Shown here: positions 62-32,658 of the stretch, piece after piece
Layout: each line of letters opens with the position of its first letter
Position numbering within the stretch: position 1 is the first letter of the stretch
Source of the DNA: Prevotella sp.
GTDB taxonomy: Bacteria; Bacteroidota; Bacteroidia; Bacteroidales; Bacteroidaceae
Length of the DNA stretch: 32,658 nt
Reading direction: 5' to 3'
Assembly (NCBI GenBank): GCA_017467705.1
Contig: JAFUSC010000097.1
Location: 1-32,658 of the forward strand
The notes under the pieces: generated by a model
What the model saw: only the letters and a program-made list of their open reading frames with translations
The model's database searches: none
What the model was told of the DNA's origin: nothing
Position numbers and translations under genes: made by a program

Positions 62-1632
62 ATGTTTGGTAAGAAAAAGGAAAAGACCGACCTGCTGGCC
101 TACATCCGTGAGGGACGCACGATGACGCGCGGCGAGAAGCTGCGCCTCATTGTCAGCCTGAGTATTCCCAGCATCCTGGCGCAGATTTCGGCCACGGTGA
201 TGTTCTTCATCGATGCTTCGATGGTGGGTCATCTGGGCGCCAAGGCGTCAGCAGCTATCGGACTGGTGGAGACCACGGGCTGGCTGATGGGCGGTCTGGC
301 CTCAGCTGCCAACATGGGCTTCTCCGTTCAGGTGGCCCACTTCATCGGTGCCAACGACTTCGAGTCGGCCCGCCGCGTGCTGCGGCAGTCGATTGTGTGC
401 TGTCTCATCTGGGCGCTGGCCATCACGCTGACTGCACTGGCCGTCGGCCCCTTCCTGCCCTACTGGTTGGGCGGCACCGAGGAGATAGCCCACGACGCAT
501 CACTCTACTTCATGCTCATCGGCGTCTTCGGCCTGTTCTTCCAGATGGAAGGACTGGCGGGCTCCATGCTGAAGTGCTCCGGCAACATGAAAATACCGTC
601 CATGCTCAACATCGGCATGTGCATCATGGACGTCATCTTCAACTATTTCTTCATCTATCTGCTCAACCTCGGCGTCATGGGCGCCGCCATGGGAACGGGT
701 CTGGCCGAGATCATCACGGCCGGGCTGATGTTCTACTTCCTGCTGTGGCGGTCGGAGATATTAGGGCTGTGGAGACATTCTTCGAGCTACGAGGTGCGAG
801 GTACGAGGTACGAAGGTGATTCGAGCTACGAGGTACGAGGTACGAGAATACATTGGAGGATGAAAAGGAGGGCGTGCAAGGCAATCTCGTACCTCGTACC
901 TCGCACCTCGCAGCTCGAAAAGACGCAGCTCGAAAAGACGCAACTCGAAAAAACAATTGGCGTGCTTTCCGTCCCACGACCGACGTAGTAACAACGGCCT
1001 TCAAGATCGGTGCGCCCATGGGCTTGCAGCACATGCTGATGGGTTCGGCCCAGATTGTGAGCACGCTCATCGTTGCCCCGTTGGGCACCATCGCCATTGC
1101 CGCCCACTCGCTGGCCATCACCGTCGAGAGTCTGTGCTACATGCCGGGCTACGGCATCGCCGAGGCTGCCACGACGCTGGTGGGACAGGCTTACGGCGCC
1201 GGACAGCGGGCACTGCTGCGCTCGTTCTCGCGCATGTCAGTCAGTCTGGGCATCGGCATCATGACGCTCATGGGCCTGCTGATGTACGTCTTCGCGCCCG
1301 AACTGATGATGCTGATGACGCCCGTCGGTGAGATCATCGACCTCGGCGCTCAGGTGCTGCGCATCGAAGCCTTTGCCGAACCCATGTTCGCCGCCGCCAT
1401 CGTCTGCAACGGCGTGTTCATCGGCGCCGGCGACACGCTGAAGCCGGCCATCATGAGCCTGGCCAGCATGTGGGGCATACGCCTGACGCTGGCGGCACTG
1501 CTGGCACGCGACTACGGACTGCCGGGCGTGTGGACGGCCATGGCCATCGAGCTCACCTGCCGCGGACTGATGTTCCTCGCACGGCTGTTCAGCGGCAAAT
1601 GGGCCAGAAAGATGGAGGAACAAAGCAAGTGA
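62..1632 (+). pseudogene. MATE-family multidrug/Na+ efflux protein, frameshifted inside a 7-bp repeat element (possible phase switch)
   Basis: Multi-helix MATE (NorM/DinF-like) antiporter. The N-lobe (IPSILAQISATVMFFIDASMVG; SMLKCSGNMKIPSML) is read from ATG 62 and the C-lobe (KIGAPMGLQHMLMG; GVFIGAGDTLKPAIM) ends at 1632. The two halves lie in different frames. The N-terminal frame enters a repeat element at 781 and stops near 988; the C-terminal frame is open from before 853. The element sits in the loop between the two six-helix lobes. Adding one 7-bp GTACGAG unit near 834-846 puts both halves in one frame, and the homologous element in ksgA has exactly one more unit. Without the element the protein would be about 460 residues, a normal MATE length. 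An upstream ATG at 26 is less likely because it lies before the -7 box. The gene is therefore either off by slippage or the victim of a sequencing error in the repeat. Confidence 0.88.
781..953 (+). repeat. Composite 7-bp-period palindromic element inside the MATE gene
   Basis: Two left tracts of GAGGTAC/GAGGTGC heptamers (785-813 and 823-846) are followed by a unique core containing GGGCGTGCAAGGCAATCTCG. A right tract of the complementary heptamers (CTCGTAC type) follows, then three 15-bp units of CTCGAAAAGACGCAG type. Left and right tracts can pair as a long hairpin. A homologous element in the same orientation and reading frame lies in ksgA. Translation of the shared parts gives SSYEVRGTR and VQGNL...RTS...RKDA in both genes. 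Confidence 0.88.
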
Positions 1633-1640
1633 CACCATCT

Positions 1641-1667
1641 TTCGTGTCATTCGCGTCATTCGTGGTC
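1641..1667. repeat. 9-bp-period tract (TTCGTGTCA type)
   Basis: Three consecutive 9-mers, TTCGTGTCA TTCGCGTCA TTCGTGGTC, lie directly after the MATE stop codon. The same word family recurs, mostly in reverse complement, at 16451-16477, 16678-16694 and 17280-17298. Confidence 0.7.
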
Positions 1668-1674
1668 AGAACAA

Positions 1675-1715
1675 GAAAAAAGTGCAGCTCCCGGTTCACA
1701 CCGAAAGCTGCACTT
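1675..1715 (-). terminator. Intrinsic terminator of peptide locus A
   Basis: Read on the minus strand, a stem AAGTGCAGCT / AGCTGCACTT (1680-1689 with 1706-1715) has an inner CGG/CCG pairing and is followed by a run of T (plus-strand A 1675-1680). It lies about 40 bp after the stop of the second tiny gene. Confidence 0.75.
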
Positions 1716-1755
1716 GCCGATATTAATAACTAAAAACCTAATCTGTGCTTTCTCT

Positions 1756-1833
1756 TTAGCGCTTCTCAATGCTGCGATCAATGATAAACGACGTAACAGC
1801 AAAGATAGCGAACAATTCAATTACCAGTGTCAT
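1756..1833 (-). CDS. Putative 25-residue membrane peptide A2
   Basis: This ORF encodes MTLVIELFAIFAVTSFIIDR followed by a basic SIEKR tail, which is one hydrophobic helix with charged residues after it. An AAGGAAAGGGTAACATT leader precedes the ATG and resembles the leaders of the three other tiny genes. It is the second gene of a two-gene locus with A1 (1951-2034) and is followed by a good intrinsic terminator. I do not recognise a family. Roles such as a small subunit of a membrane complex or a stress peptide are possible but unsupported. Its reality is argued from the repeated layout, the ribosome site and the terminator, not from length. Confidence 0.5.
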   Translation of the reverse strand: MTLVIELFAIFAVTSFIIDRSIEKR

Positions 1834-1886
1834 AATGTTACCCTTTCCTTACTTTAAATTTAACAATCTCTTTACTTATCACTTCT

Positions 1887-1927
1887 GGACGCTCCTTACT
1901 GCGTCCCCATTTTTATTTTTTTATTTT
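1887..1927 (+). other. Hairpin with T-rich tail between the two tiny genes
   Basis: GGACGC (1887-1892) pairs with GCGTCC (1901-1906) and is followed on the plus strand by CCATTTTTATTTTTTT. This could terminate transcription coming from the MATE gene. On the minus strand the same DNA is a long A-rich stretch between the two tiny ORFs. Confidence 0.4.
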
Positions 1928-1950
1928 TTTATTCTTTTATTTTTCTATTT

Positions 1951-2034
1951 TTAAATGCGCGGTGTGTTGTCCCGCACCCACATTCCTGTTGCAGCCAGGG
2001 CTGCACACAGGGTAATCAGTGTCATTGTGTTCAT
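1951..2034 (-). CDS. Putative 27-residue membrane peptide A1
   Basis: The start reads MNTMTLITLCAALAATGMWV, followed by the polar tail RDNTPRI. A purine-rich AAAAAGAAAGAGAGGTAAG leader precedes the ATG. It is the first ORF after the promoter at 2169-2176 and is followed by A2. Hydrophobic core length (about 17 residues) fits a single inner-membrane helix. It resembles peptides B1 and B2 (3732-3987) in size, leader and hydrophobic pattern. No function can be assigned. Confidence 0.5.
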   Translation of the reverse strand: MNTMTLITLCAALAATGMWVRDNTPRI

Positions 2035-2168
2035 TTCACTTACCTCTCTTTCTTTTTGTGTTACCCTTACTTAATCTTTTTTCTTGCTCTCTCGTGTAAC
2101 CCATCCGTGTTTTGTTGTTATCCTGATGGCGTTGGGTTTTCATGACGCCTTGTGTTCTGAAGACGGTG

Positions 2169-2251
2169 CAAAGGTACGACGAAAAACGGGTCGGCGTATC
2201 ATTTCCGACCCGTTTTCGGCCAAAAACGGCCAGATTGTTGACCTAAGTCAA
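2169..2251 (-). promoter_or_regulatory. Promoter and operators of peptide locus A
   Basis: A minus-strand -7 box TACCTTTG lies at 2169-2176. Immediately upstream is a perfect 12-bp inverted repeat, AAAACGGGTCGG / CCGACCCGTTTT (2183-2194 and 2205-2216), covering the -33 position, so it could be an operator. Further upstream is TTGACCTAAGTCAA (2238-2251), a perfect TTGAC-N4-GTCAA palindrome of the kind bound by Crp/Fnr-family regulators. Which regulator binds is not known. Confidence 0.6.
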
Positions 2252-2279
2252 ATAGCTGTGCCCGCACACAAAAGCATCA

Positions 2280-3293
2280 TCATTGGCTTTTCAGCACCGC
2301 ATCCACCATGTTCGTCAGCTCAACAAACTGCGCAATGGTCAGCTGTTCAGGGCGTTTGGTCATGAAAGGACTGGAGAAGAGTTGTTCGTACCTCGTACCT
2401 CGTACCTCGCAGCCCGACCCCACCAACTGCCGCAGTGAGACGCGCAGCATCTTGCGCCGTTGGCCGAAGACCGTTTTCACCACGCGGCGGAACAGCTGCT
2501 CGTCGCAGTCCAGATGCTGCACCTTGTTGCGCGTCATGCGGATGACGGCGCTCTTCACCTTGGGCGGCGGGTTGAACACGTTTTCATCAACGGTGAACAG
2601 ATACTCCACGTCGTACCATGCCTGAATCATCACCGACAGGATGCCGTAGGCTTTCGTGCCGGGCTGCGACGCAATGCGCTGCGCCACCTCGCGCTGTATC
2701 ATGCCCGTGCAGCAGGGAATGAGGTCGCGGTTGTCAATCATCTTGAAGAATATCTGCGACGAGATGTCATAGGGATAGTTGCCCGTCAGCACGAACTGCC
2801 CGCCGTCGAACACCGTGCGCAGGTCCATACGCAGGAAGTCACCTTCGATGATTCTCGAAACAAAACTGGTTTGGGGTACGTCTTTTCGAGGTGCGTCTTT
2901 TCGAGGTACGAGCTGCGAGGTACGAGCTGCGAGATTACCTTGCACGCCCATATCAGCCGTAAGTTCTGCCTCTGATGTATTCTCGTACCTCGTACCTCGT
3001 ACCTCGCAGCTCGAATCATCTCCGCACCTCGTACCTCGCACCTCGTAGCTCGAACCATCCTCGTACCTCGAAAAAAACTCTTTCAAATACGCCACGCTCT
3101 CCTTGTCTATCTCCACCACCTTCAGTGGGCGGGGCTTCTCCACGAGATACTGCGTCATGACGCCCATGCCCGGCCCCACTTCGAGCACAGGCAGGTCGGG
3201 ACAGGCATCGACGGTGTCGGCTATCCGTTTTGCTATCGTCAGGTCAGTCAGGAAGTGCTGCCCCAGATTCTTCTTCGGTCTTACTTGTTTCAT
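2280..3293 (-). CDS. ksgA: 16S rRNA (adenine1518/1519-N6) dimethyltransferase KsgA/RsmA with two repeat-encoded insertions
   Basis: SAM-dependent methylase that dimethylates two adjacent adenines in helix 45 of 16S rRNA during 30S assembly. The start ATG at 3293 gives MKQVRPKKNLGQHFLTD, the usual KsgA N-terminus. Longer readings would begin upstream of the promoter. Visible motifs are the SAM loop VLEVGPGMGVMTQYL, VVEIDKE, the catalytic GNYPYDISSQI (Asn kept, NYPY in place of the common NLPY), KAYGILSVMIQAWYDV, NPPPKVKSAVI and RPEQLTIAQFVELTN. The length of 337 residues is about 70 longer than usual. The excess is two repeat insertions: about 58-65 residues after YLKEFF, before the RIIEGDF strand, and about 13 residues in the C-terminal domain before FMTKRPEQ. 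Both fall in surface loops, are in frame and leave all motifs intact, so the enzyme is probably functional. Confidence 0.95.
   Translation of the reverse strand: MKQVRPKKNLGQHFLTDLTIAKRIADTVDACPDLPVLEVGPGMGVMTQYLVEKPRPLKVVEIDKESVAYLKEFFSRYEDGSSYEVRGTRCGDDSSCEVRGTRYENTSEAELTADMGVQGNLAARTSQLVPRKDAPRKDVPQTSFVSRIIEGDFLRMDLRTVFDGGQFVLTGNYPYDISSQIFFKMIDNRDLIPCCTGMIQREVAQRIASQPGTKAYGILSVMIQAWYDVEYLFTVDENVFNPPPKVKSAVIRMTRNKVQHLDCDEQLFRRVVKTVFGQRRKMLRVSLRQLVGSGCEVRGTRYEQLFSSPFMTKRPEQLTIAQFVELTNMVDAVLKSQ
2386..2413. repeat. Four in-frame heptamers in the ksgA C-terminal domain
   Basis: Three TCGTACC units and one TCGCAGC run without interruption and encode GCEVRGTRYE on the minus strand. Flanking protein sequence matches KsgA on both sides, so the tract is an addition to a loop. 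Confidence 0.85.
2876..3071. repeat. Composite 7-bp-period palindromic element inside ksgA
   Basis: This is homologous to the MATE element (781-953) and read in the same orientation relative to the gene. It has heptamer tracts GAGGTGC/GAGGTAC, the same GATTCGAGCT junction, a core with GGGCGTGCAAGG, inverse heptamers, and two CTCGAAAAGACG units. The second left tract has three GAGGTAC units where the MATE copy has two. The element is open in the gene's frame throughout and encodes the low-complexity KsgA insertion. Confidence 0.88.
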
Positions 3294-3301
3294 TCTGCCT
3301 G

Positions 3302-3333
3302 CAAAGGTACGATTAAGTAAGCGAAAAAGCAAA
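3302..3333 (-). promoter_or_regulatory. Promoter of ksgA
   Basis: Minus-strand TTTG (3330-3333), a 20-bp spacer, and TACCTTTG (3302-3309). The ATG at 3293 begins eight bases past the -7 box, so the mRNA is nearly leaderless. The spacer is an 18/20 match to the MATE promoter spacer. Confidence 0.75.
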
Positions 3334-3470
3334 TTAATTTGCATTTTTCCGAACATGAGCGCTCGCAATGCAGGCTTTAAACCCCATGAGCGACCAACTG
3401 CGGCTCCATTGAAAACGGTCTGAGGGTATCAAGACAGCTGTCCCGGGGTACAATAACTATCGTCTTGAAA

Positions 3471-3536
3471 AGTAAAGTCGCCGAGATTACTGAGTAAAGT
3501 CGCCGAGATTACTCAGCAATCTCGGCGACTTTACTC
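3471..3536. repeat. 22-bp-period palindrome array 1 (three units)
   Basis: Three 22-bp units start at 3471, 3493 and 3515. Units 1 and 2 begin AGTAAAGTCGCCGAGATTAC and unit 3 is essentially the reverse complement. The second and third units form a perfect 19-bp stem (3492-3510 with 3518-3536) with a 7-nt loop. There is no T run, so it is not an obvious terminator. The stretch 3334-3470 holds no recognisable gene. Confidence 0.8.
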
Positions 3537-3620
3537 GTTCAAAGCAGCGTTATTGGAATCCAATACGGCAGGCGCTGCACCCGAAGACGGCAGTAACGGG
3601 AACGCAAGAGCGCCGTACAC

Positions 3621-16669: not shown

Positions 16670-16694
16670 ATTACGACCACGAATGACGCGAATT
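16670..16694. repeat. Left arm of a perfect 25-bp inverted repeat
   Basis: The 25 bases beginning ATTACGACCACGAATGACGC recur exactly in reverse complement at 17280-17304. The order of arms (A, B, then A', B') shows a mosaic rather than one simple large palindrome. Confidence 0.85.
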
Positions 16695-16706
16695 CGTCCA
16701 TCCGTT

Positions 16707-16823
16707 CATTCGTCTAAAAGCCGTTCTTTCGTCTAAGATTCGTCATCCGTCCATTCGTCTAAAAGCCGTTCTTTCGTCTAAGATTCGTCATCCGTCCATT
16801 CGTCTAAAAGGCGTTCTTTCGTC
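16707..16823. repeat. 45-bp tandem repeat, 2.6 copies
   Basis: Units start at 16707, 16752 and 16797 (the last partial). Each begins CATTCGTCTAAAAGCCGTTC. Copies 1 and 2 are identical; copy 3 differs at one base in the part present. The shorter word TTCGTCn recurs inside the unit. Confidence 0.88.
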
Positions 16824-30897: not shown

Positions 30898-31051
30898 GAG
30901 GCGGCAGCTTCCGAGTCGGGAACTGCCGACTTTCGACGTGCGAAACGGCATGTTTCAGCTTGCAAAACGCCGCGTTTCGCATCGTGAAACGGCACGTTTC
31001 AGCGCCTGAAACGGTGCGTTTGGCAACCTAAAACGGCCTGTTTTGCAAGGC
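30898..31051. repeat. Palindrome array 4 (five clear units plus two degenerate, 22-bp period)
   Basis: Fifteen-base palindromes start at exactly 30942, 30964, 30986, 31008 and 31030: GAAACGGCATGTTTC, AAAACGCCGCGTTTC, GAAACGGCACGTTTC, GAAACGGTGCGTTTG and AAAACGGCCTGTTTT. Seven-base linkers differ each time. End positions vary in a paired way (G..C in units 1 and 3, A..T in unit 5). Degenerate units at 30898 and 30920 keep the period. The array lies between the regulator and the ATPase; the rest of 30800-31331 holds one hairpin (31212-31240) and the ATPase promoter. Confidence 0.88.
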
Positions 31052-31331: not shown

Positions 31332-32658
31332 ATGGAAAATCATCATCATCACCACGAGCACAGTCTGAAGAAGCAGCTGGTGCTCATCATAGCCACGATT
31401 GTGCTGCTGGCAGCAGCCGTCTGCATCGAGAAGTTCGGCGGACTGAGCAACTGGCAGTTGCTGCTGGTCTATCTCGTCCCTTATCTGCTGATAGGCCACG
31501 ACACGTTGCACGAGGCCGCTGAGGGCATAGCCCACGGCGACGCCTTCAACGAACACCTGCTCATGAGCATCGCCACCATCGGTGCCTTGTGCATCGGATT
31601 CCTGCCCGGAGCTGAGACGCAGTTCCCCGAGGCGGTCTTCGTCATGCTTTTCTTCCAAGTGGGCGAGCTCTTTGAGGGCTACGCCGAAGGCAAGAGCCGC
31701 GACAGCATAGCCCACCTCATGGACATACGCCCCGACGTGGCGCATGTGAAGGAGCAAGGAGCAAGGGGCAAGGAGCGAGGTGCGAGTGACGAGGTGCGAG
31801 GTGCGAGTGACGAGGTGCGAGACGTTGACCCTGCTGAGGTGCCCGTGGGTAGCATCATCATCGTGCGGCCCGGCGAGAAGGTGCCGCTCGACGGCATCAT
31901 CGCCGAAGGCACATCGGCACTGAACACGGTGGCCCTGACGGGTGAGAGCATGCCCCGCCCGGTGACGACGGGCGACGAGGTGGTCTCCGGCTGCGTCAAC
32001 CTGAGCGGCGTCATCAGCGTGCGCACCACGAAGAGCTACGGCGAGAGCACAGTGGCGAAAATCATCGACCTCGTGGAGCACGCCAGCGAGCACAAGTCGC
32101 AGAGCGAGACCTTCATCACGCGCTTTGCCCGCATCTACACGCTCATCGTCGTCGGGCTGGCTGTGCTGTTGGCCGTCGTGCCCCCCGTTTTGTCATTGCT
32201 CATTTATCATTCCTCATTTAGCGCAACGTTCGCCACGTGGCTCTACCGTGCCCTGATGTTCCTCGTGGTGTCGTGCCCCTGTGCACTGGTCATCAGCGTG
32301 CCGCTGGCGTTCTTCGGCGGCATCGGCGGTGCATCGCGCCGCGGCATCCTCATCAAGGGAGCCAACTACATGGACGTGCTGGCCAAGACGGACACCGTGG
32401 TGTTCGACAAGACGGGCACCCTCACCCACGGCCAGTTTGCGGTGGAGGCCGTGCACCACAGCCAGCTCGACGAGCGGCAGCTGCTACACTTAGCCGCCCA
32501 CGTGGAGCACTACAGCACCCACCCCATCGGCGCAGCCCTGCGCGACGCCTTCCCCGAGGAAGCCACCGACGGCTACCGCGTCAGCAACGTGCAGGAAATA
32601 GCCGGCCAGGGCATCACGGCGGAAGTGGAATTGAGAGTGGAGAGTGGAGAGTGGAGAG
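31332..32658 (+). CDS. P1B-type heavy-metal translocating ATPase (partial, runs off the window), with three heptamer insertions
   Basis: 442 residues are visible, open to the window edge. The start MENHHHHHHEHSLKKQ is a His-rich metal-binding N-terminus with no CxxC domain. Membrane helices follow, then the actuator domain (PGEKVPLDG, ALTGESMPRPV), the transport motif SCPCALVISVPLAFFGG, the phosphorylation site VFDKTGTLTHG and the HP locus HYSTHPIGAALR. The CPC motif with a His-rich N-terminus suggests Zn2+/Cd2+/Co2+ export rather than copper, but the last helices that decide this are outside the window. Three 7-bp tracts add codons: EQGARGKERGASDEVRGASD in the actuator domain, LSLLIYHSSF near a membrane loop, and ELRVESGEWR in the nucleotide-binding domain at the window edge. 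All motifs remain intact and the frame is open. Confidence 0.92.
   Translation, partial: MENHHHHHEHSLKKQLVLIIATIVLLAAAVCIEKFGGLSNWQLLLVYLVPYLLIGHDTLHEAAEGIAHGDAFNEHLLMSIATIGALCIGFLPGAETQFPEAVFVMLFFQVGELFEGYAEGKSRDSIAHLMDIRPDVAHVKEQGARGKERGASDEVRGASDEVRDVDPAEVPVGSIIIVRPGEKVPLDGIIAEGTSALNTVALTGESMPRPVTTGDEVVSGCVNLSGVISVRTTKSYGESTVAKIIDLVEHASEHKSQSETFITRFARIYTLIVVGLAVLLAVVPPVLSLLIYHSSFSATFATWLYRALMFLVVSCPCALVISVPLAFFGGIGGASRRGILIKGANYMDVLAKTDTVVFDKTGTLTHGQFAVEAVHHSQLDERQLLHLAAHVEHYSTHPIGAALRDAFPEEATDGYRVSNVQEIAGQGITAEVELRVESGEWR
31751..31820. repeat. Ten perfect heptamers in the ATPase actuator domain
   Basis: Ten consecutive 7-mers: two GGAGCAA, GGGGCAA, GGAGCGA, four GGTGCGA and two GTGACGA, with a gradual change from one word to the next. 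This grades the GGAGCAA family into the GTGCGAG family seen in MATE and ksgA. Confidence 0.9.
32189..32216. repeat. Four heptamers TTnnTCA in the ATPase gene
   Basis: TTTGTCA TTGCTCA TTTATCA TTCCTCA, encoding LSLLIYHSSF in a hydrophobic stretch between two predicted helices. AT-rich against a GC-rich gene. Confidence 0.82.
32631..32658. repeat. Heptamer tract TGGAGAG at the window edge
   Basis: TTGAGAG followed by three TGGAGAG up to the last base; it probably continues beyond. It interrupts the nucleotide-binding domain after GQGITAEVE. Confidence 0.85.

What the first reader, a model, noticed from the sequence alone, without database searches (positions are those of the whole stretch)
781..988. 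MATE gene switched out of frame by one 7-bp repeat unit: candidate phase-variable locus
The MATE N-lobe and C-lobe are each intact but in different frames, and the change falls inside a GTACGAG heptamer tract. The homologous element in ksgA has one more GAGGTAC at the same place and is open throughout. Adding 7 bp (1 mod 3) is exactly what restores the MATE frame. Heptamer slippage would cycle the gene among three frames, giving an on/off efflux switch.
Basis: partly seen in the sequence, partly recalled or inferred. Interest (0 to 1): 0.85.

Follow-up and report, generated by a model that had tools for sequence, protein, structure and literature searches.

The report
Palindromic heptamer elements inside Prevotella genes
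A transporter gene of a rumen Prevotella is put out of frame by a small palindromic repeat element; relatives of this element sit in frame inside many other genes, so it looks more like a dispersed in-gene passenger with one broken copy than like an on/off switch.

Summary
In detail: the two MATE lobes are each open but lie in different frames, and the change falls in a heptamer tract inside a roughly 175-bp palindromic insertion (781-957). Frame-switching as a working on/off system is not supported. The insertion belongs to a dispersed family in a draft rumen Prevotella genome: inverted arms of tandem GAGGTRC heptamers, in some copies around a core GAGAATA...AAGGTAAYCTC. It is patchy: core in 6 of 100 genus genomes, arms in 6 of 100. 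Of 94 clusters classified, 45 are in frame in a gene (41 with three or more tandem units, 9 with the core). Four have different frames on their two sides, three of these at gene boundaries, so MATE is the only in-gene break seen. In 109 of 109 related MATE loci the lobes share one frame, even where the same loop carries its own heptamer array. The MATE tract has about 3 units. Likeliest readings of the break: a recent frameshift, or an assembly error (3 of 24 contig ends examined sit in such arrays). The element works like the Rickettsia palindromic elements but is not shown to be one.

The parts
62..778 (+). MATE transporter N-lobe; its ORF continues through the element to a stop at 986-988
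   Evidence: Pfam MatE 2.9e-24; ORF list
781..819 (+). left arm, first copy, of the palindromic element
   Evidence: direct repeat D1 and inverted repeat I1
820..843 (+). left arm, second copy: the heptamer tract in which the reading parts from that of the homologous ksgA copy
844..888 (+). element core GAGAATA...AATCTC, 45 nt
886..919 (+). right arm, inverted heptamers
909..957 (+). right flank: three 15-bp repeats CGCARCTCGAAAARA, last part of the insertion
958..1632 (+). MATE C-lobe, other frame, to the stop codon
   Evidence: Pfam MatE 1.4e-29
2280..3293 (-). ksgA/rsmA, open through two heptamer insertions (start codon chosen by alignment with relatives)
   Evidence: NCBIfam TIGR00755 246.1 bits, cut-off 171; aligned with 24 relatives
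2879..3075 (-). homologous palindromic element inside ksgA, in frame; core 2931-2984
2386..2409 (-). second, arm-only heptamer patch near the ksgA C-terminus, inside the open frame
31749..31842 (+). in-frame heptamer array (AAGGAGC, then AGGTGCG) inside a P-type ATPase gene
32633..32658 (+). GAGAGTG array in the same ATPase gene; the contig ends inside it

Best explanation
The feature is one copy of a dispersed, palindromic, coding-tolerant repeat family of rumen Prevotella. Inverted arrays of a stop-free heptamer, usually GAGGTRC, flank a short core (GAGAATA...AAGGTAAYCTC, read as ENx...GNL in the genes); many copies are arm arrays without the core. Because 7 is 1 mod 3, a heptamer without a stop in its cyclic reading is open in every frame, so insertion is survivable wherever the total length keeps the frame and the site tolerates extra residues. 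Copies lie inside conserved genes (KsgA, MenC, 3-dehydroquinate synthase, RelA/SpoT, TamB, a TonB receptor) and selection keeps them in frame. Shown: the family, its arms and core, the in-frame rule, the patchy distribution, and the out-of-frame state of the MATE copy in this assembly. Inferred: that copies move or are copied between sites (multi-copy in a few genomes, not found in most, near-identical pairs within a genome); that the sites are surface loops (no structure could be run); and that the MATE copy lost its frame recently by a change in arm length, or only appears to because the assembly dropped part of the repeat. On this reading no regulated switch is involved and, if the break is real, this allele encodes a non-functional or split transporter.
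For: Own-genome BLAST lists 56 matches, many overlapping or on both strands of one copy. The core pattern hits 17 places in 6 of 100 genus genomes and none for the reversed control; 15 of those 17 cores have a length divisible by 3. The exact arm pattern gives 117, 41, 40, 21, 17 and 2 overlapping hits in six genomes and none in the other 94, with one reversed-control hit in G085. In-gene copies: 45 in frame against MATE alone out of frame; 41 against 1 if at least three tandem units are required. Neighbouring heptamer arrays are inverted complements in 16 of 23 pairs, against 5.5% for random pairs. Two copies in L105 (ksgA and an LPG-synthase-type gene) differ at 2 of 54 core positions and share GAGGAGT arms. 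At the same ksgA loop L062 (same sequence as L031) has GAGGTRC arms, L103 GAGGAAA and L105 GAGGAGT, and L115 a core-less CCAACAC array; 61 of 61 ksgA loci keep frame. MATE: 109 of 109 relatives' loci keep frame. dN/dS of the two lobes against four relatives is 0.096-0.168, against 0.065-0.113 between those relatives, so both lobes were under purifying selection until recently.
Against: Only 9 of the 45 in-frame clusters hold the core; the rest are arm arrays, for which local growth is as possible as copying. No insertion event or empty allele within one species was seen, and target-site duplications were not tested. No mobilising enzyme is known: Y1 transposases (PF01797) exceed the cut-off in 4 of the 7 genomes with core or arm hits and in 58 of the other 93, and G056, with the most arm hits, has none, though it is only 62% complete. 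Arm carriers are all incomplete drafts (0 of 50 high-quality genomes; core 1 of 50). In-gene placement is not universal: only 2 in-frame clusters come from the G056 stretches. Window dN/dS exceeds every control value in 5 of 8 comparisons, a weak hint of relaxation. 35 of 94 clusters had a non-coding side and 4 were at stretch edges and could not be judged.
Confidence: 0.66

Rival explanations
1. Real, recent loss-of-function frameshift in this strain by a change in arm length, on its way to a pseudogene. (This and the next three rival accounts of the MATE break share about 0.9 between them; the rest is unassigned.)
For: Lobes intact and still conserved. It is the only in-gene break among 46 judged in-gene clusters, as expected if breaks are rare and purged.
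Against: No second defect is seen in either lobe; no independent assembly.
Confidence: 0.4
2. Assembly or consensus error: the true genome keeps the MATE frame and the draft lost part of the repeat, because heptamer arrays and two similar elements 2 kb apart confuse short-read assembly.
For: The genome is a 170-contig draft, 77% complete. 3 of 24 contig ends examined lie in period-7 arrays, against 1.3% of interior 60-mers, and the window's own right end is one of them. Both lobes look selected, and none of 109 related MATE loci is out of frame.
Against: The left-arm region is under 70 bp and should be spanned by ordinary reads (read type not known here); the ksgA copy nearby was assembled in frame. 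The contigs were ones chosen because they bear elements.
Confidence: 0.3
3. Phase-variable switch: heptamer slippage turns the transporter on and off.
For: Unit numbers differ between homologous arms. Heptamer tracts are proposed to mediate phase variation in H. influenzae (PMC2651432). A palindrome may promote slippage (inference).
Against: Few, imperfect units; 45 of 46 judged in-gene clusters in frame; 109 of 109 relatives' loci in frame; many hosts are housekeeping genes.
Confidence: 0.1
4. The gene is expressed in spite of the frame change, by ribosomal or transcriptional slippage (an A6 run at 948-953 lies in the overlap, where a -1 slip would pass from the N-lobe frame to the C-lobe frame) or as two half-transporters from an internal start (a GTG at 874 follows AAGGAGG).
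For: Sequence of the overlap 820-988 (phase counted by hand); both lobes conserved.
Against: The A6 run is not a phased slippery heptamer for the N-lobe frame; Bacteroidota rely little on Shine-Dalgarno pairing (recalled); none of the 109 relatives' loci shows this arrangement.
Confidence: 0.08

Closest known systems
Rickettsia palindromic elements (RPE; Ogata et al. 2000, 2002, not seen; known here through passages of the review PMC10969869)
   Same: Palindromic, of the order of 100-200 bp, dispersed, inserted in frame in unrelated protein-coding genes, with a shared peptide.
   Different: Bacteroidota host; arms are tandem heptamers whose unit differs between genomes; many copies are arms only; no sequence comparison with RPEs was made.
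Heptanucleotide repeats: TAACTGA in Beggiatoaceae, Cyanobacteria and some Bacteroidetes (PMC4679880) and GGGAATC-type in Xanthomonas/Nostoc (PMC4692102), passages seen
   Same: Genome-wide 7-nt tandem units of patchy distribution.
   Different: In the passages seen they are tandem direct repeats, mostly intergenic or over-represented in non-coding regions; here they are inverted arms, in some copies around a core, and often in frame in genes.
Heptanucleotide phase-variation tracts of Haemophilus influenzae (hmw1A/hmw2A promoters; PMC2651432, section 3.5 and passages seen)
   Same: 7-nt unit; copy number changes alter expression.
   Different: At hmw 13-38 units with variation between strains; here about 3 units and no variation data. 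(Another proposed H. influenzae tract has 1-7 units.)
REP elements and their Y1 (RAYT) transposases (PMC3733652: title and start of abstract seen; otherwise recalled)
   Same: Short dispersed palindromes.
   Different: No association with PF01797; often in genes.

Membership tests
Phase-variable simple-sequence contingency locus | Tract of many near-perfect units inside or just before the gene | tested here: not met
   About 3 imperfect units
Phase-variable simple-sequence contingency locus | Unit number varies between cells or strains and changes the frame | not testable with these tools
   No reads and no second genome of the species; loci of other species all in frame
Rickettsia palindromic element type (in-gene palindromes) | Palindromic fold | tested here: met
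   97% complementary arms; folds with z -7.26 and -5.57
Rickettsia palindromic element type (in-gene palindromes) | Dispersed copies inserted in frame in unrelated conserved genes | tested here: met
   45 in frame of 46 judged in-gene clusters, 9 of the 45 with the core; 12 of 13 core-bearing copies with both sides coding; hosts
Rickettsia palindromic element type (in-gene palindromes) | Shared encoded peptide | tested here: met
   ENx...GNL in core-bearing copies read in frame in ksgA, L143, L145, L105 and L093; core length divisible by 3 in 15 of 17, some of these outside genes
Rickettsia palindromic element type (in-gene palindromes) | Sequence homology with RPE families | not tested
   No RPE sequence was fetched or compared
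REP/RAYT system | Co-occurring Y1 transposase | tested here: not met
   Over the cut-off in 4 of 7 genomes with core or arm hits and 58 of 93 others; G056 has none
MATE efflux transporter | Two MatE lobes in one reading frame | tested here: not met
   Both lobes present, frames differ

The most novel reading that the evidence does not exclude
A so far undescribed class of mobile hairpin elements in rumen Prevotella: a short conserved core whose flanking arms are tandem heptamers rewritten in concert, genome by genome (GAGGTRC, GAGGAGT, GAGGAAA, or octamers), which colonise conserved genes in frame; occasional changes in arm length then act as rare frame switches, as in this MATE gene.
Probability: 0.33. 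Interest if true: 0.78.

Novelty: new variant of a known kind. Interest (0 to 1): 0.52.

Why it matters
In-gene palindromic elements with in-frame insertion are best known from Rickettsia. A gut lineage with the same habit, and with repeat arms whose unit differs between genomes, would allow comparison of how such elements spread and how proteins tolerate them. It also warns that frameshifts at such repeats in draft genomes should be checked with reads before they are called phase variation or pseudogenes.

Tried and rejected
Phase switching as the main reading: set aside on unit number, on the in-frame ratio and on the relatives.

REP/RAYT mobilisation: no association of PF01797 with carriers.

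Old pseudogene: set aside, both lobes open and conserved, though dN/dS is slightly above controls in 5 of 8 comparisons.

Known RNA family: Rfam (evalue mode, 600-3400) gave only two microRNA-family matches far below their gathering scores (28.5 bits against 73, and 21 against 90), taken as chance.

Other different-frame clusters as further broken genes: L185, L224 and L230 were read by eye (no family search) and lie at boundaries between two genes.

Literature: ten searches listed no description of these elements in Prevotella; most subscription journals are not held, so absence from print is not shown.

Analysis flaws seen: one search did not turn minus-strand loci and was redone. In one search the looser pattern set one core start (L165) 7 nt too early. 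The cluster rule admits sparse clusters; one search recounts with at least three tandem units (41 in frame, all four different-frame clusters kept). One search counted periods 4 to 30 only; its Markov control, run on the own-genome stretches, gave no array of period 7 and one of period 11. The own-genome stretches were chosen because they bear elements, so their densities are not genome averages; the 80 loci were not chosen that way.

Full report
What the window is. It is the whole of contig C45 of a draft genome (2.53 Mb, 170 contigs, 77% complete). The closest named loci for its MATE C-lobe are Prevotella/Prevotellaceae drafts (RUI127 86% and RUG571 84% identity in the C-lobe; records of the window's own species may be left out there). 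That these are rumen organisms is read from record titles and recalled naming.

The observation. The MATE N-lobe (62-778) and C-lobe (958-1629) both match MatE but lie in different frames. The N-lobe ORF runs through an inserted palindrome and stops at 986-988; the C-lobe ORF is open back to 820. The palindrome consists of a left arm present twice (781-819 and 820-843), a core (844-888), a right arm (886-919) and three 15-bp repeats to 957. It folds far better than shuffled sequence (z -7.26; the ksgA copy z -5.57). The reading follows the ksgA copy in the first left arm and parts from it in the second, where the unit numbers differ.

A family, not a single tract. BLAST of the insertion against its own genome lists 56 matches. 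Compared by eye, several copies share a core that begins GAGAATA and ends AAGGTAAYCTC, flanked by inverted arrays of GAGGTRC heptamers. In L105 such a core carries GAGGAGT arms; in L103 the end of the core is kept with GAGGAAA arms; in L093 the MATE copy has octamer arms, and a GGTGGAG palindrome there shares the GAGAATAG start. The core pattern hits 17 places in 6 of 100 genomes of the genus with no reversed-control hit, and 2 of 151 genomes of the family, one of them this genome. The exact arm pattern is present in 6 of 100 genus genomes, in 2 to 117 overlapping hits (one reversed-control hit, in G085), and in the order in this genome alone of 149 (reversed-control hits in two other genomes). 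More generally, period 7 is the commonest tandem period among 4 to 30 both in element-bearing stretches of this genome (65 arrays in 302 kb) and in 80 relatives' loci not chosen for repeats (64 arrays in 659 kb); a first-order Markov control on the own stretches gave none of period 7. Neighbouring arrays are inverted complements in 16 of 23 pairs.

In genes and in frame. Using a codon model trained on long ORFs, 20 of 50 own clusters and 9 of 50 clusters in relatives, of any heptamer, lie within a gene in one frame without a stop. Fourteen clusters had different frames on one strand; only in MATE does the upstream ORF run past the end of the array. For the GAGGTNC family I examined 94 clusters in 76 stretches: the window, 20 own stretches, 53 stretches of five other genomes chosen by the arm pattern, and two named loci. 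45 are in frame in a gene, 35 have a non-coding side, 4 are at an edge, 3 follow a stop, 3 lie between genes on opposite strands, and 4 have different frames. Three of those four lie at boundaries of two genes, leaving MATE alone. Requiring at least three tandem units leaves 41 in frame; 9 of the 45 hold the core; by source they are 12 from this genome with the window, 14 G051, 13 G085, 2 each from G056, G067 and L135. Among 17 core-bearing copies with paired arms, 12 are in frame, MATE is not, and 4 have a non-coding side. Hosts of GAGGTRC-type clusters in this genome include a beta-eliminating lyase, MenC, 3-dehydroquinate synthase, RelA/SpoT, a nucleotidyl transferase, WbqC, TamB and a TonB receptor; hosts of other heptamers include an M49 peptidase, a radical-SAM/TRAM protein, a sigma factor and a pseudouridine synthase. 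KsgA with its insertions still scores 246 bits against a cut-off of 171.

Relatives at the same sites. The loop between the MATE lobes is 6-54 nt long in 101 of 109 relatives' loci (29 of the loci, all 80, some the same sequence) and longer in 8. All 109 keep both lobes in one frame, and 7 carry heptamer arrays of their own, of differing units. L093 has a full element there and L135 a GAGGTGC-type array, both in frame. In one search, 80 of 100 genomes gave 81 matches; all 80 outside this genome have an open frame of 457 aa or more, two of them with one TAA in the matched stretch. In ksgA, 61 of 61 loci keep frame; insertions over 60 nt are found in L031/L062 (one sequence, GAGGTRC), L103 (GAGGAAA), L105 (GAGGAGT) and L115 (CCAACAC, no core). 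So these loops have been filled more than once, and the frame is kept.

What the MATE break means. dN/dS of the lobes against four relatives is 0.096-0.122 (N) and 0.098-0.168 (C); between those relatives it is 0.065-0.107 and 0.097-0.113; the window exceeds the control range in 5 of 8 comparisons, slightly. The window carries 1 and 2 unique residues at columns invariant in nine relatives; the relatives carry 0 to 5. The break is therefore recent or not real. An artefact is a serious rival: 3 of 24 contig ends examined lie in period-7 arrays, about nine times the interior rate, and the window's right end is one. A switch would need a tract that slips often; here there are about 3 imperfect units, and the 45 to 1 ratio shows that copies in genes are not cycling through frames. 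I put a real recent frameshift at 0.4, an assembly error at 0.3, a switch at 0.1 and expression despite the break at 0.08.

Known things. The element works like the Rickettsia palindromic elements, which the review PMC10969869 describes as about 150 bp, nearly half of them in genomic ORFs, encoding a conserved peptide (passages). It is not filed as an RPE: no sequence comparison was made and heptamer arms are not part of that description. Other heptamer repeats in print (PMC4679880, PMC4692102, passages) are mostly intergenic or over-represented in non-coding DNA. How the copies spread is open; Y1 transposases do not track them.

Change on checking: because only 9 of 45 in-frame clusters hold the core, I lowered confidence in the element reading from 0.70 to 0.66 and the novel case from 0.35 to 0.33.

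Noticed in passing
own-genome stretches L141-L157, e.g. L142:4754-4832, L155:7884-7922: Intergenic heptamer arrays often have units with a stop codon on the gene's strand and tend to begin within about 30 nt of the upstream gene's stop codon.
   Followed up: partly
L105:3156-3260 and L105:6049-6155: A second palindrome family with TTGAACT-type heptamer arms and another core, twice within 3 kb.
   Followed up: no
L115:7007-7096: About 13 near-perfect CCAACAC units in frame inside ksgA, a far better slippage candidate than the window's tract.
   Followed up: no
window 32633-32658: The contig ends inside a GAGAGTG heptamer array within a P-type ATPase gene.
   Followed up: partly
window 3471-3540: Two perfect 22-bp repeats AGTAAAGTCGCCGAGATTACTG followed by their inverse, between ksgA and the next gene.
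   Followed up: no
window 16692-16823 and 30942-31037: Tandem repeats of 45 bp and 44 bp.
   Followed up: no
L043, MATE inter-lobe loop: A 267-nt in-frame insertion with SES-type repeated peptides at the same loop in genome G047.
   Followed up: no
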